From: an uncultured Myxococcales bacterium
GTDB lineage: Bacteria > Myxococcota_A > UBA9042
Length of the DNA: 64,000 bases
Assembly (NCBI GenBank): GCA_903929795.1
Contig: CAIYWC010000113.1
Location: 1-64,000, forward strand
Direction: 5' to 3'
Shown: positions 783 to 26,325 of the stretch, one piece after another
Layout of the letters: every line of letters begins with the position of its first letter
How positions within the stretch are numbered: the stretch's first letter is position 1
Notes under the pieces: model-generated
What the model was told of the DNA's origin: nothing
The model's database searches: none
Seen by the model: the letters and a program-made list of their open reading frames with translations, nothing else
Position numbers and translations under genes: made by a program

Positions 783-905
783 GCGCGGGTGATTCTTTGG
801 GCGCAGGGGGAGACGCCGTCCTTGGAGCGTAGGGAGTCCCGGCACGGCCGTCAACCGCGGCGCCGCGCGTTGACGCAAAGTGCCCGCCAAGCCTAAGCTT
901 TGGCC

Positions 906-3900
906 ATGGTGATGCAGACACAGACGGACAGGCGACGGCGGCTTCCCGCGCGGCGCATGGCAACCGATCTGGCCTGGCTCGCGCTGGTTTTGTCGGCGTG
1001 CGGATCGCCTGCGCCGGCGCAACAAGCACAAGTGACCGCGGACACAGGGCCTGAGGATGCAGTCGTTGCTGCAGAGGACGCGGCCGATGTTCTTGAGGAC
1101 GCGGCCGATAGCCAGAAGGATGCGGTCGAAGCTCAAAAGGATGCGACCATTGCTTCTGAGGACGCGATCGATGCGGATGGGATCGCGGTCGAGGTTCAGG
1201 GAGACGCAGTCGTTGGTCCTCAGGACGCGGCCGATGCAGCAGAGGACGCGGCCGATGGTCAAAAGGACGCGCCAGATGCCGATTTGTGCGCGGGCATTGC
1301 CTGTCCGGACCTGCCGTGTGCGACCCAGGCCTGCGCCCCATCGACTGGGGCCTGCGTCCCGACAGCCAAGGCCGACGGCACCGCTTGCGATGACGGCAAG
1401 AAATGCACCTTGAACGACGCCTGTGCGGCTGGCGTCTGCAGCGGATCAGCTCCGAACTGCGACGATGGCAATGCGTGCACGAACGACAGCTGCAACGCCT
1501 CGCTCGGATGCGTCAACACAGTGGTCAAAGCAGGAACGGCCTGCGACGACGGCGATGCGTGCACGGTCAGCGACGTGTGCGCCGGGATGAGCTGCGGTGG
1601 CAGCGCGAAGTTGTGGGAGAAGACGTTTGGCGCGCCGACGCAGGGTGAGTTGGAGACAGTCATCGCCGCGGACGGCGGCTTTGTTGCCACGGGCTACCAG
1701 ACCACGCTCGCCTCGTGGGGAACGCCGGTCAGCAGCTCGCTGGTTGTCAAGTTCGACGCCGCCGGCAATGCCGTCTGGAATCAGACCCTTGGCGCGAAAG
1801 ACGACGGAACGATTGCGGTTGTGGCGACGTCGGACGGCTACGTCGTCGCGACGAACAGCATAGGGACACTGTCGTCCGACAACTCGCTCGCCAAGATCGA
1901 CAAGGCGGGAAAACTCCTCTGGCTACAGCCCTATCCAGAGAAAGTCCTCGACCAGTTCTATGGCCTCGTCGCAGACGGTTCCGCGGTCGTCGCCTCGGGC
2001 GATGCTTGGAACGCGTCCGGCATCCCGCACGGCTGGTTGCAGCGCATCGACGCCAGCGGCGCGCCCGAATGGACCCGCATCGCCAGCGATGGCACTTACC
2101 AAGCGATCGCCAGCGTGCCCGGCGGCTACGCGGTGATCGGCGACCTCGCCATGGGCGGCGCATCGGAAATCGGGCTGTTTCGCTTTGACACCCAGGGCAA
2201 CCGGCTCTGGCAGCGGGGCTACGACGTCGACTCCATCCAGCCAAGCAGCATCATCGCCCTGCCGGACGGCTTCGCGCTCGCGGGAGGTGCCAACCAATGG
2301 GCCACCACCGGCTCGTGGTTCATCCGCACCGACACCGCCGGCAACGAGCTGTGGCGGCGCACGTACCCCGGCACCGGCACTTTCTTCGGCGCGATCGCGG
2401 TCGGCGACGGCTTTGTGCTCCGGAGCGAGTCTGGCACGACGGTGCTGCGCGTGGACGGTTTAGGCAACCTCCTGACCAGCAAGGACTTTCCCGGCGGGAC
2501 CGGCTTCGCGCTTGCCACCGACGGTACCAGCCTGCTGTTTGGCGGCAGCACGCCGTCCGGCCTGCCGTGGCTCCAGCGCACCGACCTCTTTTTCAACACC
2601 ACCTGCGTCCCACCGTGCGGCAGCCTCACGCCGACGGGCTGCGACGACGCCAACCCCTGCACCGCCGACCTCTGCGACGCCGCGCACGGCGGCTGCTGGC
2701 ACGTCAACCTCGCGGACGGCGCGTCGTGCACGTCGGGCGACGCCTGCCAGACCGGGCAGACCTGCAGCGCCGGCGTGTGCAGCGGCGGCGGCGAGAAATT
2801 CTTCAGCAGCAGCATGGACTTCACCAGCATCACCGACCTCTGGCCCAGCGCCGGCGGCTTCTTTGTCGCCGGCAGCAGCGGCGGCTTGGCGCGCATCGCT
2901 CGCAGCGACGTGCTTGGCAAGACCCTGTGGAGCAAGGACTTTCCCCAAGGCGGCAGCCTCGAGACCTTCACCGCGCTGGCCCCGCAGCCTGGCGGCGGCA
3001 TTGCGGCAATTGGCCAGAGCGCCGACGCCACGGCCACGCACAGCTTTCTCGTCACCGTCGACGCCGACGGCGCGGCAACGGCCAGCCAGACCTATGGCAA
3101 TTCCTGGCAATTGGCGGCGCTTTCGCCCAGCGGCGTCGGCTTTGCTGCGGCCGGCAGCGCGGCCGTAGGCGCCAATCCGCCGGATATGCTGCTCCTGGCG
3201 CTGGACGCGACTGGCGCGGTGGCCTGGTCGCAGACGTTTGGCGGCCCGGGCGAGGACGTGGCGCACGCGCTTGTCGTGCTGCCGGACGGTTTCTTGCTCG
3301 CCGGCTCGACCGCGCCCAGCGGCGGCTGGTCGCAGGGCTGGCTCGTCCGCTCGGACAGCAGCGGCGGCTCAATCTGGGCCGAGACGTTCGCCGAACCCTC
3401 CCCCAAGTCCGCGATCTTCAGCGCGATTGCCACAAGCGACGGCTTCGCGCTCGCCGGCTTGACGGATCAGAACATGAGCTGGATCGGCCGCTTTGACGCC
3501 AACGGCAAGCTGCTCTGGCGCCGCGACTTGAACCTCAACGGCGCGTCGGGCGGCCTGGTCGCCACCGCCAACGGCTTTGCCACACTCGTGCATTTCGGCG
3601 GCTGGGAGGACCAGCTGCAGCGCTACGACGGCACCGGCACGCTGCTAGGCGCGGCGTCCATCGGCCCGACCGGCAGCATCCTGACCCAAAGCACGGCGCT
3701 TTACGGGCTTGCCGACGGCTTCGCGCTCGCGTATGGCGCGCCCGGCAGCTTGGCGTTGATGCGCACCGACAGCTTCGGCAACGCGTCCTGCGCCGCCTCC
3801 GGCACCTGCGCCAGCCTCCCCGCCAGCGGCTGCGACGACGCGAACCCGTGCACCGCCGACGACTGCGACGCCGTCCACGGCGGCTGCTGGCACACAAGCC

Positions 3901-4769
3901 TCGGCGACGGCCAACCGTGCGGCTACGCCAGCGCGTGCAGCGCGGGCACCTGCGTGTGCGCGCCCGGCTTCATCGGCGTCGCCGGAGGCGTCGGCACGGT
4001 CTGCGCCGCCGACGGCCCGGTCTGGGGCAACCTGCCGATTTCGCCCACCAACTTGACCGACAACGGCGACGGCACCGTCAGCGACGCCGCCACCGGCTTG
4101 ACCTGGCAGCAGGCCAGCCCCGCTGCCAGCACCGCGACCTGGGCCCAGGCCAGCGCGGCGTGCGTCGGCTTGAACCTCGGCGGCCACAGCGACTGGCGGC
4201 TGCCCAGCCTGGCGGAGCTCAGCACGCTGATCGACTTCAGCAAGGCCAACCCCGCGACTTCCAACCTGTTGCAGACCAACGTCGCGGACTACTGGAGCGC
4301 CACGCCGGCGGGGACCGGCTGGTGGACGGTCAACTTCGGGTTCGGCGCCGAGGCCAGCGACGCGCCCAGCGCCGCCAACCACGCGCGCTGCGTGCGCGGC
4401 ACCACCGCCAGCACTAGCGGCGCGCGCTTTGTCGCCACCGCCAACACCGTCGGCGACGGCTGGACGCAGCTCACCTGGCAGCGCGGCGTCGATCCGCAGG
4501 GCGAAACCGTCACCAGCGCCGCCGGCTACTGCGCCAGCCTCGCCGGCGGCTGGCGCTTGCCCAACATCCAGGAATTGCGCGGGCTTGTCGACCGCAGCGC
4601 CGGCAGTCCGGCCATCGACGCCGCCAGCTTCCCCGCCACGCCGGCCGACTGGTTCGGCGCCAGCAGCATCGCCGGCGCGCCGGTTCCGGATTGGCGCGTC
4701 TCGTTCGCCGACGGCAGCTCCATGGCCAGCGCGCCGACCGCCAGCCTGCGCGTGCGCTGCGTCCACTGA
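906..4769 (+). CDS. Large surface lipoprotein: acidic linker, Cys-rich modules, propeller repeats, two DUF1566 domains
   Basis: About 1287 residues. An Arg-rich n-region (RRRRLPARR) and hydrophobic stretch end in the lipobox LSAC, so the product should be a lipoprotein. Next comes an acidic linker of about 85 residues made of EDAAD-like repeats, then Cys-rich CDDGxxCT modules. Two long stretches of propeller-like repeats follow (blades such as FVATGYQT and LAGGANQ with GNxLW/LWxR turns). A second and third Cys module ([26 protein letters not shown]) flank the second stretch. The C-terminal third has two DUF1566/Lcl-like domains, marked by DNGDGTVSDAATGLTWQQ and two WRLP motifs. Family knowledge suggests an extracellular or cell-surface role; the ligand is unknown. 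ATGs at 906 and 912 and a TTG at 900 are possible starts; no good ribosome binding site decides between them. Confidence 0.8.
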   Translation: MVMQTQTDRRRRLPARRMATDLAWLALVLSACGSPAPAQQAQVTADTGPEDAVVAAEDAADVLEDAADSQKDAVEAQKDATIASEDAIDADGIAVEVQGDAVVGPQDAADAAEDAADGQKDAPDADLCAGIACPDLPCATQACAPSTGACVPTAKADGTACDDGKKCTLNDACAAGVCSGSAPNCDDGNACTNDSCNASLGCVNTVVKAGTACDDGDACTVSDVCAGMSCGGSAKLWEKTFGAPTQGELETVIAADGGFVATGYQTTLASWGTPVSSSLVVKFDAAGNAVWNQTLGAKDDGTIAVVATSDGYVVATNSIGTLSSDNSLAKIDKAGKLLWLQPYPEKVLDQFYGLVADGSAVVASGDAWNASGIPHGWLQRIDASGAPEWTRIASDGTYQAIASVPGGYAVIGDLAMGGASEIGLFRFDTQGNRLWQRGYDVDSIQPSSIIALPDGFALAGGANQWATTGSWFIRTDTAGNELWRRTYPGTGTFFGAIAVGDGFVLRSESGTTVLRVDGLGNLLTSKDFPGGTGFALATDGTSLLFGGSTPSGLPWLQRTDLFFNTTCVPPCGSLTPTGCDDANPCTADLCDAAHGGCWHVNLADGASCTSGDACQTGQTCSAGVCSGGGEKFFSSSMDFTSITDLWPSAGGFFVAGSSGGLARIARSDVLGKTLWSKDFPQGGSLETFTALAPQPGGGIAAIGQSADATATHSFLVTVDADGAATASQTYGNSWQLAALSPSGVGFAAAGSAAVGANPPDMLLLALDATGAVAWSQTFGGPGEDVAHALVVLPDGFLLAGSTAPSGGWSQGWLVRSDSSGGSIWAETFAEPSPKSAIFSAIATSDGFALAGLTDQNMSWIGRFDANGKLLWRRDLNLNGASGGLVATANGFATLVHFGGWEDQLQRYDGTGTLLGAASIGPTGSILTQSTALYGLADGFALAYGAPGSLALMRTDSFGNASCAASGTCASLPASGCDDANPCTADDCDAVHGGCWHTSLGDGQPCGYASACSAGTCVCAPGFIGVAGGVGTVCAADGPVWGNLPISPTNLTDNGDGTVSDAATGLTWQQASPAASTATWAQASAACVGLNLGGHSDWRLPSLAELSTLIDFSKANPATSNLLQTNVADYWSATPAGTGWWTVNFGFGAEASDAPSAANHARCVRGTTASTSGARFVATANTVGDGWTQLTWQRGVDPQGETVTSAAGYCASLAGGWRLPNIQELRGLVDRSAGSPAIDAASFPATPADWFGASSIAGAPVPDWRVSFADGSSMASAPTASLRVRCVH
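1051..1278 (+). repeat. Degenerate in-frame tandem repeats encoding the acidic EDAAD linker
   Basis: The bases GAGGACGCGGCCGAT recur with variants about every 21-30 bases, giving repeats such as AAEDAADV, LEDAADSQ and AEDAADGQ. They lie between the lipobox and the first Cys module of the surrounding lipoprotein gene. Such a low-complexity tether is expected to change length by slippage. Confidence 0.6.
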
Positions 4770-4848: not shown

Positions 4849-4924
4849 GGGGTCATAGCTCAGCTGGGAGAGTACCTGAATGGCATTCAGGGGGTCATGG
4901 GTTCGATCCCCATTGGCTCCACCA
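4849..4924 (+). tRNA. tRNA-Ala (anticodon GGC)
   Basis: A complete 76-base cloverleaf. The acceptor stem GGGGTCA pairs with TGGCTCC, including two G-U pairs. The anticodon stem is CCTGA/TCAGG with loop ATGGCAT, so the anticodon is GGC and reads GCC/GCU alanine codons. The T arm is ATGGG-TTCGATC-CCCAT. The discriminator is A and CCA is encoded in the DNA (4922-4924). A promoter lies upstream and a hairpin terminator downstream. Confidence 0.97.
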
Positions 4925-4957
4925 AGTACCGGAATCCTGAAGCTTTACGCTTGCATC

Positions 4958-4987
4958 AAAAGCCCGACGAGGGCTTTTGCTGTTTTT
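4958..4987 (+). terminator. Rho-independent terminator after tRNA-Ala
   Basis: An eight-base stem AAAAGCCC/GGGCTTTT with loop GACGA (4958-4978) is followed by GCTGTTTTT. It lies 34 bases after the tRNA 3' end and before the MFS gene, so it probably ends the tRNA transcript. Confidence 0.8.
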
Positions 4988-5054
4988 GCGCGGCTGTTTG
5001 GCGTCGCTGACTGGCGTTTGGCGTTTTGGCCGCGTCTGCGCCACACTCAGCGCC

Positions 5055-6320
5055 ATGCCGCCCACCGCCGCCACAACCGCCCCTTTTCGCGCCTGGCGCT
5101 GGCGCGTCTTTGCCAGCACCTGGCTCTGCTACGCCGGGTTTTACTTCTGCCGCCGGCCGTTCTCCATCGCCAAAGCCGACATCGGCAACCAGCTGCACTG
5201 GACCGCGACCGACCTCGCCCACGTCTACGCCGCCTACCTCATCGCCTACGCGCTCGGCCAGTTCGCCTCCGGCGCCATCGGCCCGCGCTTGGGCCCGCGC
5301 AAGATGCTGCTCGGCGGCATTGCGCTCAGCATCGCCTGCAGCGTCGCGTTTGGCTTTACCGACAGCCTGCTCTGGTTCATCGCGCTCATGGCGCTCAACG
5401 GCGTGGCCCAAGCCACCGGCTGGTCCAACACCGTCGGCACGATGGCCAACTGGTACCGCCGCAAGGAGCGCGGCACCGTCATGGGCATCTGGGCGACCAA
5501 CTTCCAGATCGGCGGCGTCGCGGCCGCGGGCTTGGCCGCCTGGATGTTGCCGCGCCACGGCTTTCGCTTCGCGTTTTACTCGGGCGCGGCGGTGCTGGCA
5601 GGCGTCGCGGTCATCGTGTTCCTGTGGCAGCGCAACCGCCCCGAGGACGCCGGCTTGCCCGCGCTCGTCGATCCCGACCAGCCGCCGGAAGACGCCGACA
5701 CGCCGACGCCCAGGTGGTCGCGCGAGACCTGGATCACAGTGCTGCTGATCGGCGGCGCGTATTTTGGCATGAAATTCATCCGTTACGCGCTGTGGAGCTG
5801 GGCACCGTTCTTCCTGGAAAAAAACCTGCACCTGCGCGGCGACGACGCGGGCTACGTCTCGACGCTTTTCGACGGCTGCGGCGTCGTCGGCGTCATCGCC
5901 ACCGGCTGGCTCAGCGACAAGGTGTTTCGCGGCCGCCGCGCCACCGTCAGCTTCCTGATGATCCTCGGCGTCGTCGCCGCCACGTTGCTCCTGTTCACCG
6001 TCGGCGCGCACAGCGTCCTGGGCTTCGCCGTCTCGATCGGCCTCATCGGCTTCACGCTCTACGGCCCCGACGCGCTGCTCACCGGCGCCGGCGCCATGGA
6101 CGTCGGCGGCTTGCGCGGCGCCGTGCGCGCGTCCGGCATCATCTCGGGCATTGGCTCTGCCGGCTCGGTCGTGCAGGAGCTCGTCATCGGCAAAATGTAC
6201 GACAGCGCCCACGGCTCCATCGCGCCCATCTTGGCGACATTGCTGGGCTCTGCGCTGTTCACCGCGGCGTGCGTCGGCGCGATTGTCTGGCGCAACCACC
6301 GCGGCGCTTCGGACATGTAG
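5055..6320 (+). CDS. MFS transporter, organophosphate:phosphate antiporter (GlpT/UhpT-like) type
   Basis: A 421-residue protein with about twelve hydrophobic segments. Near the N terminus YAGFYFCRRPFSIAKADI resembles the first helix of GlpT/UhpT proteins, which exchange sugar or glycerol phosphates for inorganic phosphate. The loop GPRLGPRKMLLGG after the second helix is the MFS signature. The domain-joining loop (around 195-225) is acidic and Pro-rich. Substrate cannot be read from the sequence, and bacterial members also include regulatory sensors. ATG 5055 is chosen because upstream in-frame codons lie in and just after the terminator. No cognate metabolic gene is adjacent. A decayed copy of the last 58 bases is found 1 kb downstream. 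Confidence 0.85.
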   Translation: MPPTAATTAPFRAWRWRVFASTWLCYAGFYFCRRPFSIAKADIGNQLHWTATDLAHVYAAYLIAYALGQFASGAIGPRLGPRKMLLGGIALSIACSVAFGFTDSLLWFIALMALNGVAQATGWSNTVGTMANWYRRKERGTVMGIWATNFQIGGVAAAGLAAWMLPRHGFRFAFYSGAAVLAGVAVIVFLWQRNRPEDAGLPALVDPDQPPEDADTPTPRWSRETWITVLLIGGAYFGMKFIRYALWSWAPFFLEKNLHLRGDDAGYVSTLFDGCGVVGVIATGWLSDKVFRGRRATVSFLMILGVVAATLLLFTVGAHSVLGFAVSIGLIGFTLYGPDALLTGAGAMDVGGLRGAVRASGIISGIGSAGSVVQELVIGKMYDSAHGSIAPILATLLGSALFTAACVGAIVWRNHRGASDM

Positions 6321-6564
6321 CCGCGCGGTCGGTGCGCGTCGGCACGGCTGGAGCGTCAACAACTGCCGCGCGCCAATTCGCCGCGCCTCGCTCAGCACGC
6401 ACTGGAGCCGCCTCTGGTGCTGGAGATTGCGATGCCTCGTTCTCGACGACGCTGCCTGCCTGCTCGTCGCTGGCGCCCTTGCGCGCGTGGCGGCGACCAG
6501 ACGGCCTCGTCCAGCGCATCGAATCGGCTATCGGCGCGCCGCCGGGCCTGCCCACCGAGGAGTT

Positions 6565-7074
6565 CTAGTTCGTCTTCTTGAAGTCGCTGAAAGTCGTCGT
6601 TCCGTTGCAGTTGCTCAAGGCACTCACGTGTGTCCACGTAAAGGAGCCGGCCATGGTTTTCTGGTCGGCCGAGAGCGTGACGTTCACGGCCGTGACGGTC
6701 GTCGTCCCGCCGTACTCGGAGTACCCTGCGGGCGTGGTGGTCCAGCTCACGGCGTTCGTCGCGCTGACGGTTCCGGCGTAGCTCAACTTGGGCAGCAGCG
6801 AATTCGTCAAGGTGAAGTCGCAGCTACCAGCTGGCTGCGTGATCTGGAAGCTGGGATTCGTGACGATTCCGGTGATGGCGGAGGAGCAGGTCGTGTCGCC
6901 GACGAGGACCTGTTCACTCGCGGTCCACGTCCCGCTGATGTTGGCACAGGCGCTGCTGGTGTCGTTCCCGATGGCACCATCACCACCAACGTCGCCACCA
7001 CCGCCGCCGCTACTGCTGCCGCCGCATCCGACGCCCAAGGCGCACGTCACGGCGAAAACGAAGACCCTTTTCAT
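6565..7074 (-). CDS. Small hypothetical lipoprotein
   Basis: 169 residues. Signal peptide MKRVFVFAVTCALGVGC ends in a lipobox, and a Gly/Ser-rich linker follows. The remainder (from ACANISGTWTAS) looks like a compact beta-sheet domain resembling lipocalin-like or META-type secreted domains, with SGTW and AGSFTW motifs at its two ends. It contains Cys residues that could pair. Function is not recognised. A possible extended -10 (TGCTATCTT on the minus strand, near 7140) lies upstream. Confidence 0.7.
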   Translation of the reverse strand: MKRVFVFAVTCALGVGCGGSSSGGGGGDVGGDGAIGNDTSSACANISGTWTASEQVLVGDTTCSSAITGIVTNPSFQITQPAGSCDFTLTNSLLPKLSYAGTVSATNAVSWTTTPAGYSEYGGTTTVTAVNVTLSADQKTMAGSFTWTHVSALSNCNGTTTFSDFKKTN

Positions 7075-7478
7075 CTTGTGCTTTTTTGTCCTCTCGTGAG
7101 GGATGACCGAACCTGCCCGGCCGCACCCGGCACCAAGATAGCATCGCGCGAGTCGTGCACCACCGCTGCGTGGGCATCTGCCACGAGCGTGTCATGACCG
7201 AGCAGATTGGCGACAAGTTGCCCCACCGGCCGACAGACGGAGTTCCGAGCCCCTCTGGCTGCTGAGCTTCCCAGCACCCATCGTCTGGCGCACCCACCGC
7301 GGCGCTTCAGACAGGTAGCCGTGCTGTCACTGCGCGGCGGTCCGGCGTCCGCCGCAGTCAGGCAGCGGTCACGGGAGCGGCGAGGTCAGGCTTGGTCATT
7401 CGACAAGCTGGCGAGGTCTGCCGATCCCAGTGCGGCGATGCTGCGATCGGTCGTCATCCGAGGTCCGCATGTGCAGAC
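7075..7478. other. 404-base intergenic stretch between two minus-strand lipoprotein genes
   Basis: It holds the upstream region of the small lipoprotein gene (7075-7180) and, at 7279-7336, a decayed copy of the 3' end of the MFS gene. I see no further gene, RNA or terminator in it. Confidence 0.6.
7279..7336 (+). pseudogene. Relic duplicate of the MFS transporter gene 3' end
   Basis: These 58 bases match 6281-6338, the last codons, stop and first downstream bases of the MFS gene, with about nine mismatches (roughly 84% identity). The copy still reads VWRTHRGASDR-stop where the gene reads VWRNHRGASDM-stop, so the reading frame and TAG are kept. Nothing upstream in the copy resembles the rest of the transporter. 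It suggests an old partial duplication around the intervening lipoprotein gene. Confidence 0.6.
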
Positions 7479-10400
7479 TCAGCAACCTTCGCCATAAAGG
7501 CAGCAGTCGCCGTCGGGGTTGGAACAACACGGATCCGTGCAGCAATTGTCCACATAGCACGTGCCGTTGTTGCAGGCCGCGCAGTAGCCCGTGCACAGCG
7601 CGTCGCCCCGGCAATACCCGGTGCCGTCGAACGCGAGGACGCACTGTTCGTTGAACGTGCAGGGATCGCCGGTGTTGCAATACGCGCCCACCAAGGCCAC
7701 GGGCGTGCAGACGCCGGTACTGCATTTGTAGTGCGTGCAGTCGGTGGCGACGCCGCATGGAAGCGCGTCGCTCGGCACGCTCGAGCACGTGCCCGCGTTG
7801 CAGCTGTCCGCCGTGCAGGGATTGCCGTCGCTGCAGTTTTTGGGCGCTCCCGAGACGCACTCGCCGCCTTGGCACGCGTCTCCGACGGTGCAGGCGTTGT
7901 TGTCGTCGCAGGCGCCGGTCTGGGCGGTGTGCGCGCAACCACTCGCAGGCACGCAGGAATCGGCGGTGCAGGCGTTGCCATCGTTGCAGTTCGCCGTGCC
8001 GGTCCCGGTGCATGCGCCGCTGACACAGTTGTCGCCGGTCGTGCACGCGTTGCCGTCACTGCAGCTTGTGCCATTTCCCAGGTTGACGTGCTTGCAGCCG
8101 ACCGACGTGTCGCAGCTGTCGGTGGTGCAGGGCTGGCCATCGTCGCAGGAGACGGCCGTCAGGTACGCGCAGCTGCCGCCCGAGCAATGGTCGCCGGAGG
8201 TGCACGCATTGTTGTCCGAGCAGGTCGCAAGATCGTTGGCGACATGCTTGCATCCGCTTGAAGTTACGCACGAATCTGTCGTGCACGTGTTGGCGTCATC
8301 GCAACCGAGGGCCGCGCCGCCGTGGCACGCGCCGTTTGAACAGCTGTCCCCGGTGGTGCAGGCATTGCCGTCGTCGCAGGGTCCACTGGCGCTGGCGTGG
8401 GTGCAGCCCGCGATCGCGTCGCACGCATCGATGGTGCACGCCACGCCGTCATCGCAGCCGATGGGGCTTCCGGGTACGCACGCGCCGCCGAGACAGCTAT
8501 CGCCGGACGTGCAGACGCTGTTATCCGTGCAGGTGGCGGCGTTGGCCAGGTGCGTGCAGCCCGTCTGGGCGTTGCAGCCGTCGTTGGTGCACGGATTGCC
8601 GTCGGAACACAGCGCCGCGGTCCCGCCGAGGCAGCTGCCGCCCGCGCACGCGTCCCCGACCGTGCAAGCGTTGCCATCCGTGCACGTCGCGGCGTTGGCG
8701 AGGTGCGTGCAGCCGGTTGGGGCGGAGCAGCCGTCCGTTGTGCAGGGGTTGCTGTCAACGCAATTGGCCGCTCCGCCAGGCTGACAAGCGCCGCCGACGC
8801 ACGCGTCGCCGATCGTGCACGCGCTGCCGTCGTCGCAGCTTCCGGCCTGCGGCGCGTGTGTGCAACCTGAGACGCTGTCGCAGCCGTCCGCCGTGCAGCC
8901 GTTGCCGTCGTCGCAGCTGCGGTAGTTGCCGGAACTGCAGACGCTGTTGAGGCACTGATCGCCGACCGTGCACGCGTTGGCGTCGTCGCACGGGTTGCTG
9001 TTCGCTTTGTGCGCGCAGCCCGTGGTGCTCACGCAGCTGTCGGTCGTGCATGGATTGCCGTCGCTGCAGTCCACGGCGTTGGGCCCAATGCAGACGCCGG
9101 CCGCGCACACATCGCCGGTCGTGCACAGATCGCCGTCAACGCACACGCCGCCGTCGACGGGTTGCGAGACGCAGCCGCTGCCGGGCTGGCACGTGTCGGC
9201 CGTGCACGGGTTGCCGTCATCGCAGTCGAGCGCGGTGCCGCCCAGACACGTGCCACCGCTGCACGCTTCGCCAAACGTGCAGACGTTGCCGTCGTCGCAC
9301 GCGCCGGCTTGGGCGACGTGGTTGCACTTGCCGCCGCCGCAGTTGTCTGCGGTGCAGATGTTGCCGTCGCTGCAGTCCAGGCCGCCCGTGCCGGCGCATG
9401 TGCCGCCGGAGCACGCATCGCCGGTTGTGCAGGCGTTGCCGTCGTCGCAAGCACCCGCGGCGGCCGTGTGCTGGCAGCCGGTCGATTTGCTGCACGTGTC
9501 CAACGTGCACACATTGCCGTCCGCGCAGTCCGTCGCGGCGCCGCCAACGCACGCGCCGGCTTGGCAGAGGTCGCCCGAAGTGCACGGATCGCCGTCGGAA
9601 CACGCCTTCGGGTCCAATGCCGTGTAAACGCAGCCGCTGCCTACAGAACACGCGTCCGCGGTGCACGGATTGCCGTCGTCACAGTTCCTGAGCGCGCCGC
9701 CGATGCATGCGCCGGCCTGGCAGATGTCGCCCAGCGTGCAGACGTTCCCGTCATCGCACGCGCCGCTGATGGCCTTGTTCTGGCACCCGTCCGTCGCGGA
9801 ACAACTATCTGATGTACAAGGATTTTCGTCGTCGCACGCAAGCGCGCCGCCCGGGATGCAGCTGCCGGCCGCACAGTGGTCGGCCAGGGTGCAGACGCTG
9901 CCGTCCGTGCACGTGGCGGCGTTGGGCATGTGCACGCAGCCCGAGTTGGCCGCACAGCTGTCGTCCGTGCACGGGTTTTGGTCGTCGCAGGCCAGCGTCT
10001 CGCTGGAAGTGCAGCTGCCGCCTTGGCATTTGTCGCCCAGCGTGCACGCATTGTCATCGCTGCAGCTGAGCGTGTTGGCGGTGAAGGCGCAGCCGCTGCT
10101 GGCGTCGCAGCCGTCGTCCGTGCACGGGTTGGCGTCCGTGCAGAGGACGGAGTTGCCCGGCGTGCAGCTGCCGTTGAGGCATTGGTCGCCGGCCGTGCAA
10201 GCGTCCCCGTCGTCGCAGTCGCCGCTTGCAGCCTTGTGTTTGCAGCCACTTGCGGCCACGCAGCTGTCCGCGGTGCACGGATTGCCGTCGTCGCAGTCGA
10301 GCGCGCCGGCGCCGAGGCACTTTCCGCCAGCGCAGCTGTCGCCGGTCGTGCACAAGTTGCCGTCGGTGCATTTGCCGCCGTCCGCGCTGATCGACGTGCA

Positions 10401-11621
10401 ACCGCTTGCCAAGTCACACGAATCCGCCGTGCACACGTTGCCATCATCGCAGTCCAGCGCGCTGCCGGGCTGACACGCGCCGCTGCTGCACACGTCGCCG
10501 ACGGTGCAGGCGCTGCCATCGTCGCAAGCGGCGCTTGTGGCCTTGTGCGCGCATCCCGCGCTCGCGTCGCAACTGTCTGCCGTGCAAGGATTTTCGTCGT
10601 TGCAATCGGTGGCCGCGCCCGGCGTGCACACGGCGTTCACGCAGCTGTCGCCCACCGTGCACACGTTGCCGTCGTCGCAGCTGCCGCCCGTCGGCAGGTG
10701 TTTGCAGTGACCGACCGGGTTGCACTGCTCAATCGTGCACGGGTTGCCGTCGTCGCATTTGGTGACGTCGCTTGGAAGTGCCGGATCGCAATCCGGATTC
10801 TTGTCGCAGTCTGCTGGACAGCTGACCGTGGTTTCACCCAATGCCGCGACGCAAAACCCGTCGCCGCAGTAGCCGCAGTCGACCGGGCAGCTCAGGAAAT
10901 CCTCGCCGCCTTCGCAGGTTCCGTTGCCGCACGACGCGGCGCAGTCTTTTGGGCACTGTGCCGGACCGCCGTCGCTCGCTTCACACACGCCGTTGCCGCA
11001 GACCTGCCAGACGCAGTCCTCGGCGCACGTCGCCGGCGACTCGCCCTTGTCGCAGACGTGGTTGCCACACGCGTTGGCGCAGTCCACCGGACACGCTTGC
11101 GGCGACTCACCGCAGTCGTAGCCCTTGCATTTGCCATCGCCGCAGGAGCCGCAGCAGTCGATCTTGCAGCTCGTCGGGCCTTCTCCCGGTTCGCAAACGC
11201 CGTTGCCGCAGCCTTTGCAGTCGGCGGGGCAGGTCGTTTGGGTTTCGCCGCACGGCGTGCTGCAGATACCGTCGCCGCAGGTGCAGACCGGCCCAGTGAC
11301 TTCCGCGGAATCCGTTTCCCCATCGGCTTCGGACGCGGCGTCCGACCCGTCCTGCCCGGCAACCACGTCCGTCCCGGGCGCGTCGTCCGCGTCTGGTGTC
11401 GCGTCCGCATCGCCGACGGGCGCAACCGAGGCGTCAGCGGTCGCATCATTCGCCGACACGCTGTCGGGGCCCGCGGCGTCGCTGCCGCTTTGCCCGTCTG
11501 CGTCGAATGCGCTCTCCGCCGAATCCTGTGCAGAATCGGGCTGATCGCCCACCGTTGTGTCATCCGCCGCAGTCTTGGGCGTGCCGCAAGCGACCGCGGC
11601 CAGGAAAAAGCAGGCGAACAC
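7479..11621 (-). CDS. Giant Cys-rich repeat lipoprotein (1380 residues)
   Basis: A hydrophobic segment ending in the lipobox AVAC is followed by an acidic Asp/Ala/Ser linker of about 95 residues. Seven CGxGxCExGE...CPxDC modules come next. Then about nineteen double modules of roughly 45 residues alternate CDDGNxCTxGDxCxxGxC with CDDGNPCTxDSCxxxxGC. The end is a distinct Cys-dense tail (CCTDPCCSNPDGDCC). There is no globular domain. Related repeats are common in secreted Myxococcota proteins, where Dickkopf-like database hits are usual; they are expected to be disulfide-bonded and surface-exposed. The start is unsure: GTG 11621 gives no positive n-region, whereas upstream in-frame codons read KPGRRGYEA, which would suit a signal peptide but has no obvious start codon. 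Confidence 0.8.
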   Translation of the reverse strand: MFACFFLAAVACGTPKTAADDTTVGDQPDSAQDSAESAFDADGQSGSDAAGPDSVSANDATADASVAPVGDADATPDADDAPGTDVVAGQDGSDAASEADGETDSAEVTGPVCTCGDGICSTPCGETQTTCPADCKGCGNGVCEPGEGPTSCKIDCCGSCGDGKCKGYDCGESPQACPVDCANACGNHVCDKGESPATCAEDCVWQVCGNGVCEASDGGPAQCPKDCAASCGNGTCEGGEDFLSCPVDCGYCGDGFCVAALGETTVSCPADCDKNPDCDPALPSDVTKCDDGNPCTIEQCNPVGHCKHLPTGGSCDDGNVCTVGDSCVNAVCTPGAATDCNDENPCTADSCDASAGCAHKATSAACDDGSACTVGDVCSSGACQPGSALDCDDGNVCTADSCDLASGCTSISADGGKCTDGNLCTTGDSCAGGKCLGAGALDCDDGNPCTADSCVAASGCKHKAASGDCDDGDACTAGDQCLNGSCTPGNSVLCTDANPCTDDGCDASSGCAFTANTLSCSDDNACTLGDKCQGGSCTSSETLACDDQNPCTDDSCAANSGCVHMPNAATCTDGSVCTLADHCAAGSCIPGGALACDDENPCTSDSCSATDGCQNKAISGACDDGNVCTLGDICQAGACIGGALRNCDDGNPCTADACSVGSGCVYTALDPKACSDGDPCTSGDLCQAGACVGGAATDCADGNVCTLDTCSKSTGCQHTAAAGACDDGNACTTGDACSGGTCAGTGGLDCSDGNICTADNCGGGKCNHVAQAGACDDGNVCTFGEACSGGTCLGGTALDCDDGNPCTADTCQPGSGCVSQPVDGGVCVDGDLCTTGDVCAAGVCIGPNAVDCSDGNPCTTDSCVSTTGCAHKANSNPCDDANACTVGDQCLNSVCSSGNYRSCDDGNGCTADGCDSVSGCTHAPQAGSCDDGSACTIGDACVGGACQPGGAANCVDSNPCTTDGCSAPTGCTHLANAATCTDGNACTVGDACAGGSCLGGTAALCSDGNPCTNDGCNAQTGCTHLANAATCTDNSVCTSGDSCLGGACVPGSPIGCDDGVACTIDACDAIAGCTHASASGPCDDGNACTTGDSCSNGACHGGAALGCDDANTCTTDSCVTSSGCKHVANDLATCSDNNACTSGDHCSGGSCAYLTAVSCDDGQPCTTDSCDTSVGCKHVNLGNGTSCSDGNACTTGDNCVSGACTGTGTANCNDGNACTADSCVPASGCAHTAQTGACDDNNACTVGDACQGGECVSGAPKNCSDGNPCTADSCNAGTCSSVPSDALPCGVATDCTHYKCSTGVCTPVALVGAYCNTGDPCTFNEQCVLAFDGTGYCRGDALCTGYCAACNNGTCYVDNCCTDPCCSNPDGDCCLYGEGC

Positions 11622-12003
11622 GGCCTCGTAGCCGCGCCGACCGGGCTTGAACGCGCCAGCGCGTGCGCCGGTGGGCTGTCGTTGTGCGTCGTGTGTCGGG
11701 CAGATCGGGGCTCCAAGGGTACAGACTTCGGGAAGTGTCCGTTCGGGTCCAGCTCCTCCGCTGCCCGGGAACTTCCATGCTGTTGTTGTCTCGTGCGCAG
11801 TTTGCGCTTTCAGACAGAGCAGTCAAGCCAGGTGTTCGTTGCCGCAAAACCACACGATTTTGCGCACTTCAGGCGGAGATGCCCGTCCGTGGCACGCGGC
11901 CCGCATGCCCCATCCCGCACCGTCGCCGACCTGTAGCCGCGCCGCCGCCGCGGGTTTACACTCCGCCCCAGCCGCGCCTGCTTCGCGCGTCCCGGAGTCC
12001 GCC
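11622..12003. other. 382-base divergent promoter region
   Basis: This gap lies between the starts of the minus-strand Cys-rich gene and the plus-strand DUF4139 gene. A seven-base inverted repeat CGCAAAA/TTTTGCG (11843-11864, loop of eight) sits near its middle and could be an operator. A TTGACT hexamer (minus strand, 11821-11826) lacks a convincing -10 partner at standard spacing. The leftmost part may encode the true signal-peptide start of the Cys-rich protein. No other gene is seen. Confidence 0.4.
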
Positions 12004-14181
12004 ATGCGCCGTCTCGCCCTCGCCTTGCTCGCCCTGCCCGCTTGCCTGCCGATGCAGCAGCTGATTGAAATCAAACGCGAATTGCCGGTCACCAAGGTCG
12101 TGCTGTACCAGAACGGCGTCGGCTATTTTGAGCGACGCGGCAAGCTGCACGGCAAGGAAGTCGAACTGCGCGTGCGGCCGGATCAGGTCAACGACGTGCT
12201 CAAGTCCCTGAGCGTGCTGGATTTGTCGGGTGGCACGCCGTCGTCGGCGTCGCTGCCGGTGGAGAAATCCGGCGATCGCCTGGCGCAGGAGCTGCCGGCG
12301 CAGGTCCGCAACGCGACCGGGATGCTGGGGCTGCTGGCGGTGCTGCGCGGCGCGGAGGTGGAGGTGGACGCCGACCAGGGCACGCTCCAGGGCCGCGTGG
12401 TCGGCGTGGAGACGACGCAGCGGCGCTACGTGAACGGCAACGGCGAACAGGTCAGCGCGGAGCCGATGCTGACGCTGATGGCCAACGAGGACCAGCTGCA
12501 GACGGTGCCGGTCAGCCAGATTCGCCGGCTGACGATCGGCGACAAGACGCTGTCGGTGGGCCTGCAGCAGTCGCTGGATATCTCGCGGTCGGACGGCGCC
12601 TGGAAGCCAATCAGCGTGACGGTGCGGCTGGCGGGCGATGAGAGCCACGACCTGATTATCAGCTACATTCATGAGGTTCCGGTGTGGCGGCCGGCGTACC
12701 GCGCGTGGATTGAGAGTGGCAAGGGTATCCAGCTGCAGGGCTGGGCGGTCGTTGACAACGTCTCGGGCGAGCCGTGGAATGACGTGAACCTGACGCTGGT
12801 GGTCGGTTCGCCGCTGTCGTTTCGCTACAATTTGGCGACGCCGCACAACGTAGAGCGGCCGGATTTGTCCAGTCGTTTGCCGCAGATAGCGGACGCGCCG
12901 CCGCCGCCGGATGTGGGCTTCGCGCCGTCCGCTCCTGCGCCGCCGCCGGCAGCGATGGAGGCCGATTTTGGCGGCGGTGGCTCGGCGGACGGGTATTTTG
13001 ACGCCGCCCCGTCGTCCGGGCGCAAGATGGCGAAATCGGCCGACGCGCCGAAGCCGATGGCGATGGCGATGGCGCGCCAGCAGGCGATGGCGACCGACGC
13101 GCGCATGCAGGCCCAGCGCGCGCAGATGCAAGAGCAGATGGCGCGCCAGGAGGAAGACGCCCGGCGCGACGCGATGCAGCGGTCCGCGCAGGCGCTGATG
13201 CAAGGCCGCGACGTGGGCGCGCTGTACGCGTACGAGGCCACGACGCCGATCACGGTGCCGGATCGCTCGGCGGCGCTCATCAACATCATCTCGCGGCAGA
13301 TCGACGGCAAGGATATCTTCCTGTTTCGCGATCCGCAGTCGGGCGAGGCGCCGTTTCGCGCCGTCATGCTGAAAAACGCCAAGGATTCCACGATTGAAGG
13401 CGGGCCCATCACGCTGTACATCGACGGCACGTTCGCCGGCGAGGGCTTTATCGGCCGCGTTGCGAAGGACGAGACGGCTTTTGTGCCGTACGCCAAGGAA
13501 GGCGGTTTCGCCTTGAATTTGCAGCAGGAATACCGCATCGATGAGCTGCACCTCGTGCGCATTGTCGACGGCCGGATCACGATCCAGGGCAAGCGCGTGG
13601 CGACTCGGACCATCCAGCTGGAGTCCAACCGCGACAAGCCGAGCGTGGCGTACGTCAAGCTGCCGCTGACCGGCGGGATGGAATTGCTCAATCCGCCCAA
13701 GGACTTCGTGCGCAGCGGCGGGGACGTGTACGTGCCGGTCGAAGTGGCCGCCAAGGCCAAGGCGGAGGCCAAGCTCGTGGAGGCGACGCCGGTGGAATTC
13801 GTCGAAGCCGGGCTGACGTCGCAAGTCCTGGACGCTTTTCGCTTTTACCTGCAAGGCGCGCATGTGGTGGACGCCATCGCGGGGCCGATTCGCGAGCTGC
13901 TGACGGCGCAGGACCAGCGGGGAGCGCTGCAGCGCGACCAGGAAAACCTGCAGCGGCAGGCGCAGATTCTGGACGCGGACGGTCGGCGCATTCAGAGCAA
14001 CCTGGACTCCCTGCCGCTGGGCCCCGTGGCGGCGGACTTGCGCAAAAAGCTGGTGGATCAGCTGGCGGCAACGTCCAAGAAACAGGCGGAAGTGGCGAAA
14101 AAGCTTGTGGAAGGTCAGGTCAAGCTCGCGGCGATTGACGAGCACATCCGCACGCTTCTGGCGCAGATTGACCTGAAGTAG
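12004..14181 (+). CDS. DUF4139-domain lipoprotein
   Basis: 725 residues. A lipoprotein signal MRRLALALLALPAC opens the protein, preceded by CGGAG nine bases before ATG 12004. The segment VTKVVLYQNGVGYFER and the later WRPAYRAWIE, GWAVVDNVSGEPWNDV and LTLVVGSPLSFRY are typical of DUF4139 proteins, a family including mucoidy-inhibitor MuiA-like members. A Pro-rich and then Met/Ala/Gln-rich low-complexity insert (residues about 295-400) splits the domain. The C-terminal 100 residues (from about 640) form a heptad-rich coiled coil. The molecular function is unknown; an envelope location is inferred. It is followed closely by the RMD1-like gene. Confidence 0.8.
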   Translation: MRRLALALLALPACLPMQQLIEIKRELPVTKVVLYQNGVGYFERRGKLHGKEVELRVRPDQVNDVLKSLSVLDLSGGTPSSASLPVEKSGDRLAQELPAQVRNATGMLGLLAVLRGAEVEVDADQGTLQGRVVGVETTQRRYVNGNGEQVSAEPMLTLMANEDQLQTVPVSQIRRLTIGDKTLSVGLQQSLDISRSDGAWKPISVTVRLAGDESHDLIISYIHEVPVWRPAYRAWIESGKGIQLQGWAVVDNVSGEPWNDVNLTLVVGSPLSFRYNLATPHNVERPDLSSRLPQIADAPPPPDVGFAPSAPAPPPAAMEADFGGGGSADGYFDAAPSSGRKMAKSADAPKPMAMAMARQQAMATDARMQAQRAQMQEQMARQEEDARRDAMQRSAQALMQGRDVGALYAYEATTPITVPDRSAALINIISRQIDGKDIFLFRDPQSGEAPFRAVMLKNAKDSTIEGGPITLYIDGTFAGEGFIGRVAKDETAFVPYAKEGGFALNLQQEYRIDELHLVRIVDGRITIQGKRVATRTIQLESNRDKPSVAYVKLPLTGGMELLNPPKDFVRSGGDVYVPVEVAAKAKAEAKLVEATPVEFVEAGLTSQVLDAFRFYLQGAHVVDAIAGPIRELLTAQDQRGALQRDQENLQRQAQILDADGRRIQSNLDSLPLGPVAADLRKKLVDQLAATSKKQAEVAKKLVEGQVKLAAIDEHIRTLLAQIDLK

Positions 14182-20884: not shown

Positions 20885-23090
20885 CTATTTCATCTTGACG
20901 CGCAGAACGGCCTCGCGCGTTTGCGTGGCGCCGGTGGAGAGCAAATTGCCATTATTGTCCGTGCCGGTGGAGCCGACGAGGTAGACCGAGCCCGTCACGC
21001 TGTCGACCCAGACCTTGTTCAGCGCCGTGCGCGCGCGCGTCCCCGCGGTGTTGCTGCAAGTGGTGACGTCGGCGGTGGTTGCGACGATCTTGTCCCACGT
21101 CCAGCTGGTGCCGAACGTGCCATGCATCACGAACATCGAGCGGCACGTCGTGGTGCCGGGAATGTCGACCGTGCCAGCGACCCAGCCGTCGCTGCCGGCC
21201 AGATAGACGCTGCGGACGGCGTAGTTGGTGCCCCAGGCGCTCGGCGCGGAAAGCGGCGCGGTTGGCGCCTGCGCGGTCCAGACGCCGTTGTCGAATGCAG
21301 TCAACGTGCCAGAGTCACCGCCGGCAAGCATGTGGCTGGCCGAGGTGCCGTGGATCGCGCGCAGAATGAAAGTCGGCGCGTTGATGGCGGTCTGGAAGGC
21401 CGCGGGATCGGCGCTGGTCGCGGTGTAGGCGACGCCGCCCAGGTTGGTGATGCCGCCGCACGCCGCCGTCGCGTTGCCGTTCCAGACGGCTACGCCCGTC
21501 ACGTTCTGGCCGCCGCCGACGGCTGCCGCCTGCGAGTAGGCCGTGATGTAGAACAGGTTGGACGCCGCCGCGTAAATGTCCGTGACACTGAGGGCCGCGT
21601 TGGCGCACGCGGTCGTGCTGTTGGAGATCAGCAGCGGCTTGCCAGCCGTCCAGGTCGCGCCATTGAAGGTCGCCGTTTCCAGCTGCGCCATCGCGGGTGT
21701 GCCGCCGCCGCCGGGACCGCCGCCGGTAGCCGCGGACGCGTTGCCGCCGAACAGGTAGATTTCATTGCCGGTTGCGTCGGTCGCCATGTCCACGGCGCGC
21801 AGGGCGCGGCTCAGGCCAATCAGCGTCGGACCGCCCGCGGCCCACGTCCCAGCGGCGGTGTTGAGCACAAGCGTCGACGGCGTCGTGTCGCCGCCGATGA
21901 TGTTGCCGCCGACGGTCAGCCGCCGCCGCATATCCGTGTATTCCGTATTGTTTTGCGCGGAGTTGGCCGACAGCCCTAGAGGCGACTCGACGACCGTGCG
22001 CAGCAGCCCGGCGCTCTGGCCACCGCCGCCACCGCCGCCGCCAAAGCCCTGGTCGTAGCCCGAGGTGTTGATGCTCAAGTTCGGGTAGCGGTCCACGCTG
22101 GTGAGGATACCGGTCGTCATGTTCGCGTTCAGCGCGCCGGCGTCTTCCTCGACGCCTGTGCACAAAGTGCCGGCACAGAAAGGATATTTCTGCGCGGCGG
22201 AAGCGGTCGCGCACGTCGTGCCCCACGGCTTGATGGCGCTGCTGCAGCCGGCGGTGGCGTCGCAGCTGTCGGCGGTGCACGCGATGCCGTCGTCGCACGA
22301 CTTGGAGGTCCCGGCGGTGCACGTGCCGGCCACGCAGGTCGCTGCGGGCGTGAAGATGAGCGTCGCGCAGCTGCTGGCACCGCAAACCGTGCCATCGGCT
22401 GCGGTCGTGTGCTGGCAGCCGGCGGACGCGTCGCAGCTGTCCGCGGTGCATGCGTTGTTGTCATTGCAGTTCAGCGCGCCGGTTCCGGCCTGGCACAGGC
22501 TGTTGGCGCAGACGTCGCCGGTCGTGCACGCGTTGCCGTCGTCGCACAGCGCGGCGTTGGGGGCGTGCTGGCAGCCCGCGGCGGGGTCGCAGCTGTCATT
22601 GGTGCAAACGTTGGCGTCGTTGCAGTTGGGCGCGGCGCCGCCGACGCACTTGCCGGAGACGCACGAGTCGCCGGTCGTGCATGCGCTGCCATCGTCGCAC
22701 GCGAGCGCGTTGTCGGCGAACACGCATCCCAGCGCGGGGTCGCAGCTATCGGTAGTGCACGGGTTGTTGTCGTTGCATGTCACGGCGTTCGGGCCGGTGC
22801 AGACGCTGCCGGTGCAAATGTCATTCGTCGTGCACGCGTTGCCGTCAGAGCAGACGGACGTGTTCGGCACATTCACGCAGCCCGTCGCGCTGTTGCAGCT
22901 GTCGTCGGTGCAGACGTTGCTGTCGTTGCAGGACTTGAGCGTGCCCGCGCAGGCGCCGCCCTGGCAGGTGTCGCCGGTGGTGCACGGGTTGGCGTCGTCG
23001 CACGCGGCGGTGTTGTTGGCGTGCAAGCAGCCCTGCACGTTGTTGCAGGTGTCCGTGGTGCACACGTTGGCGTCGTCGCAGGAAACCGCG
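20885..23090 (-). CDS. C-terminal part of a giant Cys-rich/propeller lipoprotein (downstream of a frameshift)
   Basis: This frame continues the Cys repeats of the gene beginning at 26171: after the shift it reads [13 protein letters not shown] in register with the repeat unit. About eight double modules follow. A transition ([14 protein letters not shown]) leads to a Gly-run linker (near 22030) and a 400-residue domain with propeller-like blades such as [28 protein letters not shown] and [12 protein letters not shown]. The protein ends [11 protein letters not shown]. The frame is open upstream to 23314, but there it no longer matches the repeat unit, so the real junction lies at the G-run 23091-23101. 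The whole gene would be about 1760 codons. Confidence 0.7.
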
Positions 23091-26000: not shown

Positions 26001-26171
26001 GCCGCCATCCAGCGCGGTGGCGCCGTCAGCGGTCGCGTCGTCGGTGAGGCCGGTGCCGGCGATCGCGGGCGAATCGTCGCCGCAGCCGGCCAGGTGCACG
26101 GCAACGACCAGCGCGATCGAGAAAATAGCCTCTCGCATCAGCCACTTCTGGATCATGCCTTGACCGCTCAT
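22845..26171 (-). CDS. N-terminal part of a giant Cys-rich lipoprotein (frame lost near 23100)
   Basis: Signal peptide with basic start (MIQKWLMR) and lipobox HLAGC, an acidic Asp/Ala linker, then more than twenty Cys double modules. These alternate CxDGNxCTxxDxCxxGxC and CDDxNPCTDDSCxxxxGC, with irregular members such as CVAASCGAGSFDPGSTC. Register is kept to CTAGVCGTPT at about 23100; past that point the frame gives basic nonsense (RGFLRRRQR) until a stop at 22845. Removing one base restores the repeat in the adjacent frame. ATG 26171 has GGGAGGA upstream. Either the gene is truly frameshifted, which would leave a shortened lipoprotein, or the base is an assembly error. Confidence 0.75.
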   Translation of the reverse strand: MSGQGMIQKWLMREAIFSIALVVAVHLAGCGDDSPAIAGTGLTDDATADGATALDGGSDATADILGSDAATDAAADAPSCAGLSCDDGDPCTADNCGSAGVCVHLPASGTCTDGNACTTGDHCVSGKCTGDPTNCEDKNACTADLCDPQAGCAHLPLDGTACDDGDGCTLNDTCHGSVCGTGLPPTCDDKNPCTDDTCSLATGCSYNDNTKPCSDGNPCTQGDTCGGGACLPGTASTSCDDLDPCTVDLCDAVTGCVHTAAATGTVCAGSVCEAGAFTAPSVCIGGQCVLGAQAKCDDGNVCTDDACDLAAGCTHTSNVAFCQDGSACTQNDFCLDGVCQPGTALSCDDGKVCTNDSCDPTTGCVNANVTNGFVCVAASCGAGSFDPGSTCQDGACTLAGTATNCDDANVCTDDGCLPAVGCVHAPNAATCTDGNVCTTADACLGGTCSGGTSVACNDNNPCTDDSCDTALGCQFKANAANCEDGSICTTNDACANGVCEPGVLTVCNDNNPCTDEYCNAKTGCVTTFNTNACDDLNACTVSDTCDGNGNCVGVIQGVDCNDGNACTIDSCDTLGGCTHANAAAGAICIPGSCSANGYTAPAVCAVGICGAAPTPTSCDDSQFCTTDLCNALQGCLHANNSAGCNDGNACTTADTCATGACVGTAVSCDDANPCTDDSCAPATGCAHTPNTALCSDNNPCTQNDTCSGGTCTGSATVNCDDKNVCTSDACDPFGGCTHTNNSLGCNDNNACTSGDVCSGGACVGSTAIGCDDQNVCTTDSCDAVAGCVHTNNSASCNDGSACTTNDVCSGGACVGGAALDCNDQNACTDDSCTPAGGCVHNFNTAPCNDGNACTTADACSVGGCVGGAALVCNDGNPCTTDSCDSTKGCVSSANAGLCSDGNACTTGDFCAGGSCQPGTAANCNDNNSCTDDSCNPLTGCVNTANSLGCNDGNACTTNDVCASGKCGGTGNKCDDGNACTVDSCDSTGGCVHTALGDGATCIATTCVGSAWQGGATCTAGVCGTPTHRGFLRRRQRVHHGHLQQRAGLLARQQHRRVRRRQPVHHRRHLPGRRLRGHAQVLQRQQRLHRRQLQQRDGLRECAEHVRLL
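23091..23101 (-). other. Single-base frameshift in a G-run
   Basis: The forward strand reads GTGGGTGGGGG here. Between the last in-register codon GGC and the resumed TCCTGC there are 19 bases where 18 would keep the frame. Deleting one base of the five-G run gives [16 protein letters not shown], a perfect continuation of the Cys repeat. Homopolymer position suggests sequencing error or slippage. Confidence 0.75.
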
Positions 26172-26325
26172 CGTTCATCCTCCCTGCGCGCCGCAACGCG
26201 CGATCCCACCGATGGACGATACGAATCGCAGCGGACGAAAGAAGGGATCGATGGCGCGGACGACAATAACTTTACAAATCCACACCAATGCCCCGCTCAG
26301 TGCTCAGGCTTGGCTGGCGCGACGA

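What the first reader, a model, noticed from the sequence alone, without database searches (positions are those of the whole stretch)
7479..11621. All-Cys-module lipoprotein of 1380 residues
After the linker the protein consists of seven CGxGxCExGE modules and about nineteen CDDGN double modules without any globular domain. It could form a long disulfide-stiffened surface fibre. With three other repeat lipoproteins in 60 kb, recombination between copies may generate diversity.
Basis: partly seen in the sequence, partly recalled or inferred. Interest (0 to 1): 0.55.

Follow-up and report, generated by a model that had tools for sequence, protein, structure and literature searches.

The report
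Disulfide-rich repeat lipoprotein from myxobacterium
A bacterium related to myxobacteria encodes a long lipid-anchored protein made almost wholly of cysteine-rich repeats like those in slime-mould matrix proteins; it is one of about a hundred such genes in this genome and probably acts as a stiff surface stalk or coat strand.

Summary
A 1380-codon minus-strand ORF (7479-11621) encodes a lipobox-type signal, an Asp/Ala/Ser-rich linker, 7 CGxGxC modules, 39 half-modules (19.5 double modules) of Pfam Dicty_CTDC, and a unique Cys-rich C-terminal cap; 210 of its residues are Cys. It is not unusual in this genome: 81 fetched stretches hold 103 non-overlapping ORFs with 1829 half-modules (about 5.6% of the genome), and all 52 genomes of the relatives search carry the family. 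AlphaFold models four double modules at pLDDT 96.8 as a chain of small beta hairpins without a clear PDB match. Arrays at conserved sites in sister species mostly keep module number and order (61/61, 50/50, 24/24/24, 22/22/22), and modules are not homogenised. However, this gene is a mosaic: its first ~425 residues belong with another locus, then identity falls to background. Its site is empty in two sister species and holds unrelated genes in a third. Best reading: an outer-membrane-anchored, disulfide-stiffened spacer or coat strand, a headless member of a large stalk-lipoprotein family. Function is inferred, not shown.

The parts
7479..11621 (-). P0001, CTDC-repeat lipoprotein ORF (GTG 11621, stop 7479-7481), 1380 aa
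   Evidence: GC3 0.84 in frame against 0.57 and 0.64 in the other two frames
11586..11621 (-). Hydrophobic end of signal and lipobox Cys (residues 1-12); true start probably upstream of 11621, in-frame open region to 11822
11286..11585 (-). Asp/Ala/Ser/Thr-rich linker (residues 13-112)
   Evidence: similar linkers in relatives
10794..11285 (-). Seven CGxGxC modules (residues 113-276)
7758..10757 (-). 39 Dicty_CTDC half-modules, A/B alternating (residues 289-1288)
10344..10355 (-). Mosaic break near residues 423-426: identity to L153 0.84 before, 0.50 after
7482..7757 (-). Cys-rich C-terminal cap outside the repeat (residues 1289-1380)
6321..11935 (.). Stretch absent between MFS gene and DUF4139-like gene in G003 and G002
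6282..6348 (+). 67-bp direct repeat, copy 1 (spans the 3' end of the MFS gene)
7280..7346 (+). 67-bp direct repeat, copy 2 (84% identical)
6565..7074 (-). Small lipoprotein-like ORF (169 aa) between the two repeat copies
4977..6320 (+). Flanking MFS transporter
   Evidence: MFS_1, E 7.1e-43
12004..14181 (+). Flanking DUF4139-like gene (Pfam score 19.4, below the cut-off of 31.8)

Best explanation
P0001 is a secreted, N-terminally lipid-anchored strand. A flexible acidic linker carries seven CGxGxC modules and about twenty double CTDC modules, each locked by its own disulfides, forming a long, protease-resistant, stiff spacer or coat strand at the outer membrane. It is a headless member of a large paralogous family in which similar arrays carry binding or sensing heads (FG-GAP propeller repeats, Laminin-G-like lectin domain, Lcl_C, MopE-type metal motif). 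Shown: sequence anatomy, module repetition, Cys invariance, lipobox homology, family size, mosaic make-up, site variation. Inferred: surface exposure, disulfide state and pairing, stiffness, and role as coat or spacer.
For: Dicty_CTDC match. Eight Cys kept in 2330 of 2378 usable double modules (the search requires module-like sequence, so this leans high). AlphaFold pLDDT 96.8, pTM 0.66 for four double modules, repeated hairpins. Lipobox and acidic linker shared with relatives; lipobox-like signal in 63 of 82 complete CTDC ORFs. Paralogues with heads: FG-GAP_2 in L128, Laminin_G_3 in L164, Cu-binding_MopE in L140, Lcl_C in window 900-4769. 18 DsbA-like Thioredoxin_4 matches in this genome, several ORFs with 3-4; family f1 median 18 (capped) against 7 in 82 genomes outside the class. 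Array length looks constrained: one-to-one module conservation in congeners. Precedents read as passages: TraA Cys-rich repeats proposed as a rigid stalk (PMC3325183), Dictyostelid CTDC matrix proteins (PMC4931340).
Against: No expression, localisation or redox data. Foldseek found no PDB match at E 0.001 (best 0.027). The N-terminal CGxGxC region did not model well (pLDDT 65.7). No ortholog was found in four congeners, so purifying selection on P0001 itself is untested. The start codon is uncertain.
Confidence: 0.6

Rival explanations
1. Cross-linked matrix or spore-coat component: the arrays are shed or form inter-chain disulfides to build an extracellular coat, as in slime-mould matrix and spore-coat proteins and eggshell membranes.
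For: Same Cys spacing C-X4-C-X5-C-X8-C in half A as described for CREMP, close to that of SP75, and a-b alternation (PMC3068167 passages); Dictyostelid CTDC proteins are matrix proteins; P0001 has no head domain.
Against: Lipobox implies anchoring; even Cys number per double module suits intra-module pairing; no developmental data.
Confidence: 0.25
2. Recombining surface-antigen family: module arrays exchange between paralogues to vary the surface.
For: Mosaic break in P0001 near residue 425, 0 of 500 block permutations in three of four tests, 6 of 500 in the fourth; L155 x L157 break at residue 961, 0 of 500. P0001 absent at its site in three congeners.
Against: No recent shared tracts with P0001; weak within-protein clustering of modules; one-to-one conserved arrays in most syntenic pairs.
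Confidence: 0.15
3. Metal- or calcium-binding array: conserved Asp near the Cys bind divalent ions, and binding rather than stiffness is the function.
For: Asp at fixed positions of every module is invariant or nearly so; a paralogue carries a Cu-binding MopE motif.
Against: No solved relative found by sequence; the Cys pattern suits disulfides.
Confidence: 0.12
4. Decaying or assembly-related copy with no function.
For: No ortholog found; odd start codon; two other CTDC genes in this genome are interrupted (window 23.1 kb; L133).
Against: 1380 codons open with in-frame GC3 0.84 and every module Cys in place.
Confidence: 0.07

Closest known systems
Dictyostelid CTDC matrix proteins (EcmA, EcmB, PdiA, PsiA; Pfam PF00526)
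   Same: Same repeat family by curated score; secreted, cysteine-rich, tandem modules
   Different: Bacterial, lipobox-anchored, A/B alternating double modules; about a hundred genes in one genome against 6-15 CTDC proteins without PA14 per genome in the table of PMC4931340
TraA of Myxococcus xanthus (PA14 head, Cys-rich repeats TIGR04201, MYXO-CTERM)
   Same: Myxobacterial surface protein with tandem Cys-rich repeats proposed as a rigid stalk (PMC3325183)
   Different: P0001 has no PA14 head and no NCBIfam match; anchored by an N-terminal lipobox
CREMP eggshell-membrane protein and slime-mould SP75 spore-coat protein
   Same: Half A has the CREMP spacing C-X4-C-X5-C-X8-C; SP75 has C-X4-C-X5-C-X6-10-C; alternating a-b modules in CREMP (PMC3068167)
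   Different: Half B spacing differs; CREMP modules are described as strikingly conserved between repeats, those of CTDC arrays here are about 50% alike; homology not tested
Entamoeba Gal/GalNAc lectin heavy chain, ADAM disintegrin/Cys-rich domains, TNF receptors
   Same: Disulfide-rich extended modules, weak Foldseek hits
   Different: E 0.027 or worse and Z 2.4 or lower: not evidence of relationship

Membership tests
Pfam Dicty_CTDC (PF00526) | Match above the curated score | tested here: met
   255.5 bits against 27, 19 stretches
Pfam Dicty_CTDC (PF00526) | Conserved Cys spacing of the repeat in tandem | tested here: met
   39 half-modules, residues 289-1288
Bacterial lipoprotein | Lipobox after a basic, hydrophobic signal | tested here: inconclusive
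   Lipobox-like Cys shared with relatives; start codon and n-region unresolved
TraA-type receptor | PA14 domain | tested here: not met
   Pfam scan up to E 1 lists CTDC only
TraA-type receptor | TIGR04201 repeats and MYXO-CTERM | tested here: not met
   No NCBIfam family up to E 1
CREMP / SP75 | C-X4-C-X5-C-X8-C spacing | tested here: met
   Half A spacing read from the modules against PMC3068167; spacing alone does not show homology
Actively recombining antigen family | Recent near-identical tracts between copies | tested here: not met
   None of the listed pairs involves P0001
Rigid fibre or stalk | Elongated shape with intra-module disulfides | not testable with these tools
   Model confident but no coordinates to measure

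The most novel reading that the evidence does not exclude
One family of uncultured bacteria has built its cell surface from disulfide-locked CTDC stalk lipoproteins: about a hundred or more genes and some 5% of a genome, backed by an enlarged set of multi-domain DsbA-like oxidases, with new stalks made by joining the N-terminal module of one gene to the array of another and placed at turnover sites. P0001 is a headless structural strand of that coat.
Probability: 0.3. Interest if true: 0.65.

Novelty: new member of a known kind. Interest (0 to 1): 0.42.

Why it matters
Few bacteria are known for large disulfide-rich surface proteomes (own knowledge). A whole bacterial lineage in which hundreds to thousands of slime-mould-type CTDC modules per genome form lipoproteins would give a natural library of stiff, stable modules, with lengths fixed across species and varied heads. 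It would also make testable whether CTDC repeats act as stalks in both slime moulds and bacteria. P0001 itself, a nearly pure array without a head, is a clean test object for the shape and redox state of the module.

Tried and rejected
Co-loss of cysteines to infer disulfide pairs: no double module had lost exactly two Cys (2330 of 2378 intact, 48 with one lost), so pairing could not be inferred. N-terminal CGxGxC model from 15 sequences: pLDDT 65.7, not used. PDB by sequence with P0001 and with the module profile: no hits. Foldseek and VIA-align: no clear fold match; a missing match does not show a new fold. ORF 4880-6568, used as a flank query, is a wrong frame over the MFS gene (correct ORF 4977-6320); it still located the sites. 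Short similarity of the MFS end with 11928-11955 is not above shuffles by score (26 against mean 23.3, max 32), so a target duplication around P0001 itself is not shown. In G004 the MFS end matches a place in its insert (score 49, null max 37 of 100); not followed up. Change-point tests over whole alignments picked alignment ends for P0001 and were replaced by tests on a restricted span. In that call some syntenic arrays also gave change-points above the 95% null with modest identity shifts (L132 x L218, L162 x L226, L179 x L221, L179 x L228, L175 x L224), so a change-point alone is not proof of exchange; the P0001 case rests on the fall to background identity while L127 x L153 shows none. Syntenic pairs that do not keep their arrays: L138 x L220 (42 against 23, identity 0.52) and L172 x L234 (41 against 32). 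In-print searches: Dicty_CTDC, cysteine-rich repeat with myxobacteria terms, TIGR02232, PF00526, 'slime mold repeat', CTDC with Myxococcota, five mixed terms; none listed a paper on a bacterial CTDC expansion. That is absence in this open-access library only.
Full report
What is there. The ORF at window 7479-11621 lies on the minus strand and encodes 1380 residues. In order it has a hydrophobic stretch ending in a lipobox-like Cys (residue 12), an Asp/Ala/Ser-rich linker, seven CGxGxC modules (count), 39 half-modules of the type CxDx3C (19.5 double modules) and a Cys-rich tail of about 92 residues without the repeat spacing. Cys make up 210 residues. Pfam reports only Dicty_CTDC, 255.5 bits against a cut-off of 27; NCBIfam reports nothing. 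The frame carries coding-like GC3 (0.84 against 0.57 and 0.64 in the other two frames).

Anchor. Relatives of the N-terminal part show lipobox signals followed by similar acidic linkers, and a simple rule finds a lipobox-like signal in 63 of 82 complete CTDC ORFs in hand. In P0001 the only ATG/GTG/TTG in frame before the Cys is GTG 11621, which leaves 11 residues, while a basic stretch lies just upstream in frame. The start is therefore open.

Family and lineage. P0001 has 301 matches in its own genome. I fetched 81 stretches including the window (1.07 Mb of 6.35 Mb), chosen because they held matches. They contain 104 ORFs with at least three half-modules or four CGxGxC modules, 1835 half-modules, maximum 72 in one ORF; P0001 is twelfth by count. 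After removing overlapping frames there are 103 ORFs, 1829 half-modules and 356,775 bp, 5.6% of the genome. Unfetched matches would raise this; taking ORFs from stop to stop inflates it; and some ORFs are cut by contig or stretch edges. Only 8 of 74 ORFs with ten or more modules are compact like P0001. All 52 genomes (G000 and relatives in the same class) have the family. In the phylum sample 118 of 188 have a match, but the load differs greatly: family f1 has about 800-2400 first-look candidates per genome, while the 82 matched genomes outside the class that I tabulated have a median of 31 (first-look candidates are unscored). Named relatives in GTDB are mostly labelled uncultured Myxococcales or Deltaproteobacteria MAGs.

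Structure. An alignment of 58 four-double-module stretches from this genome gave an AlphaFold model at mean pLDDT 96.8 and pTM 0.66, with two small hairpins per double module. Foldseek's best PDB match was E 0.027 (Entamoeba Gal/GalNAc lectin), and the VIA second look gave Z 2.4 at most. The eight Cys are almost invariant: 2330 of 2378 usable double modules keep all, though the profile search favours such modules.

Does it diversify by recombination? Three results speak against it as a continuing process. Within P0001 no stretches of 60 bp reach 85% identity, and P0001 is in none of the 13 between-gene pairs found at 85% over 80 bp, several of which are overlapping frames or contig ends. For modules of one type and length the nearest neighbour by DNA lies in the same protein in about 10% of cases (0-13.5% by class, expected 1.5-3.6%), with median best identity of 0.69-0.78. 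At conserved sites in congeners G003 and G002 arrays mostly keep their number: 61/61, 50/50, 48/47, 35/39/35, 24/24/24, 23/24/22 and 22/22/22; exceptions are 41/32, 42/23/none and 40/none/41. Orthologous modules are 0.71-0.89 identical in 12 of the 13 pairs aligned and exceed the best within-protein paralogue for 65-93% of modules in those 12; the thirteenth, L138 x L220, is 0.52 and 14%.

Two results speak for exchange. P0001 residues 115 to about 420 are close to L153 in congener G001 and to L127 elsewhere in its own genome; beyond residue 423-426 identity falls from 0.84 to 0.50 and from 0.77 to 0.50 (0 of 500 block permutations each; with CTDC modules alone 6 of 500 and 0 of 500), while L127 and L153 show no such fall over the same span. 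The rest of the array has no close relative in four congeners: best 52% overall, with a 62% patch in G002. The tail has only weak matches in 5 of the 21 other genomes of its family. A second pair, L155 and L157, breaks at residue 961 (0.89 to 0.55). Several syntenic pairs also gave formal change-points with smaller shifts, so the test alone is not decisive.

Site. The stretch between the MFS gene (ends 6320) and the DUF4139-like gene (ATG 12004) holds P0001 and a 169-aa lipoprotein-like ORF. In G003 and G002 the two flanking genes are adjacent, with under 100 bp between them; in G004 about 4 kb of other genes (DUF2254, 4HB_MCP_1, a weak PadR match) lie there; in G001 the contig ends. A 67-bp direct repeat spanning the MFS 3' end (6282-6348) recurs at 7280-7346, 84% identical (score 79 against a shuffle maximum of 32), and brackets the small ORF. 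Gain of P0001 in this lineage is the simpler reading, but repeated loss is not excluded. The second CTDC gene of the window (20.9-26.2 kb) is likewise absent in G003.

How it most likely works. Exported as a lipoprotein, oxidised in the periplasm by DsbA-like enzymes (18 Thioredoxin_4 matches in this genome, several ORFs with three or four) and displayed at the outer membrane, P0001 would be a long stiff spacer or coat strand. Other members carry FG-GAP, Laminin-G-like, MopE or Lcl_C parts after their arrays, so a stalk with optional head is a coherent family theme. [quoted passage not shown] CTDC proteins in Dictyostelids are matrix proteins, some of them signals (PMC4931340, passages). CREMP shares the spacing C-X4-C-X5-C-X8-C and SP75 a close one (PMC3068167, passages). 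PF00526 is listed among modelled repeat families without known structure in PMC8078820 (passage). The link between DsbA-like number and CTDC load is strong across 36 class genomes (Spearman 0.75) but not on nine family means (0.56, p 0.11), so it may only reflect kinship.

Verdict. The protein is a new member of a known repeat family. Its all-module make-up is real, though uncommon even among its paralogues; a long CTDC array as such is ordinary for this genome. The wider expansion, the fixed array lengths with occasional joining of portions, and the variation of the site are the interesting parts.

Noticed in passing
window 20888-26174, minus strand: Second CTDC gene reads in two frames with a switch near 23.08-23.12 kb; sequencing error, decay or slippage not decided. 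The gene is absent between the same neighbours in G003.
   Followed up: partly
G000:C58:29598-31469, C179:63848-65602, C63:18550-21093, C140:7630-9366: ORFs with several DsbA-like (Thioredoxin_4) domains in tandem; 18 matches in this genome.
   Followed up: partly
window 6282-6348 and 7280-7346: 67-bp direct repeat of the MFS 3' end bracketing a 169-aa lipoprotein-like ORF; looks like an insertion footprint.
   Followed up: partly
L155 (G002:C214) residue 961 against L157 (G001:C115) residue 893: Sharp identity fall (0.89 to 0.55 in the arrays) suggesting exchange of array portions between genes.
   Followed up: partly
L129 and L140 (G000:C169, C183): Two contig ends share 141 identical bases and appear to be one CTDC gene split by assembly.
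   Followed up: partly
L152 813-4958 (G004): The P0001 site holds DUF2254, 4HB_MCP and PadR-like ORFs instead, so the site may be an insertion hot spot.
   Followed up: partly
L133 6394-11667 (G000:C64): CTDC gene interrupted by a stop; one open ORF of 41 half-modules lies at the same site in G002 (L229) and none in G003 (L222).
   Followed up: no
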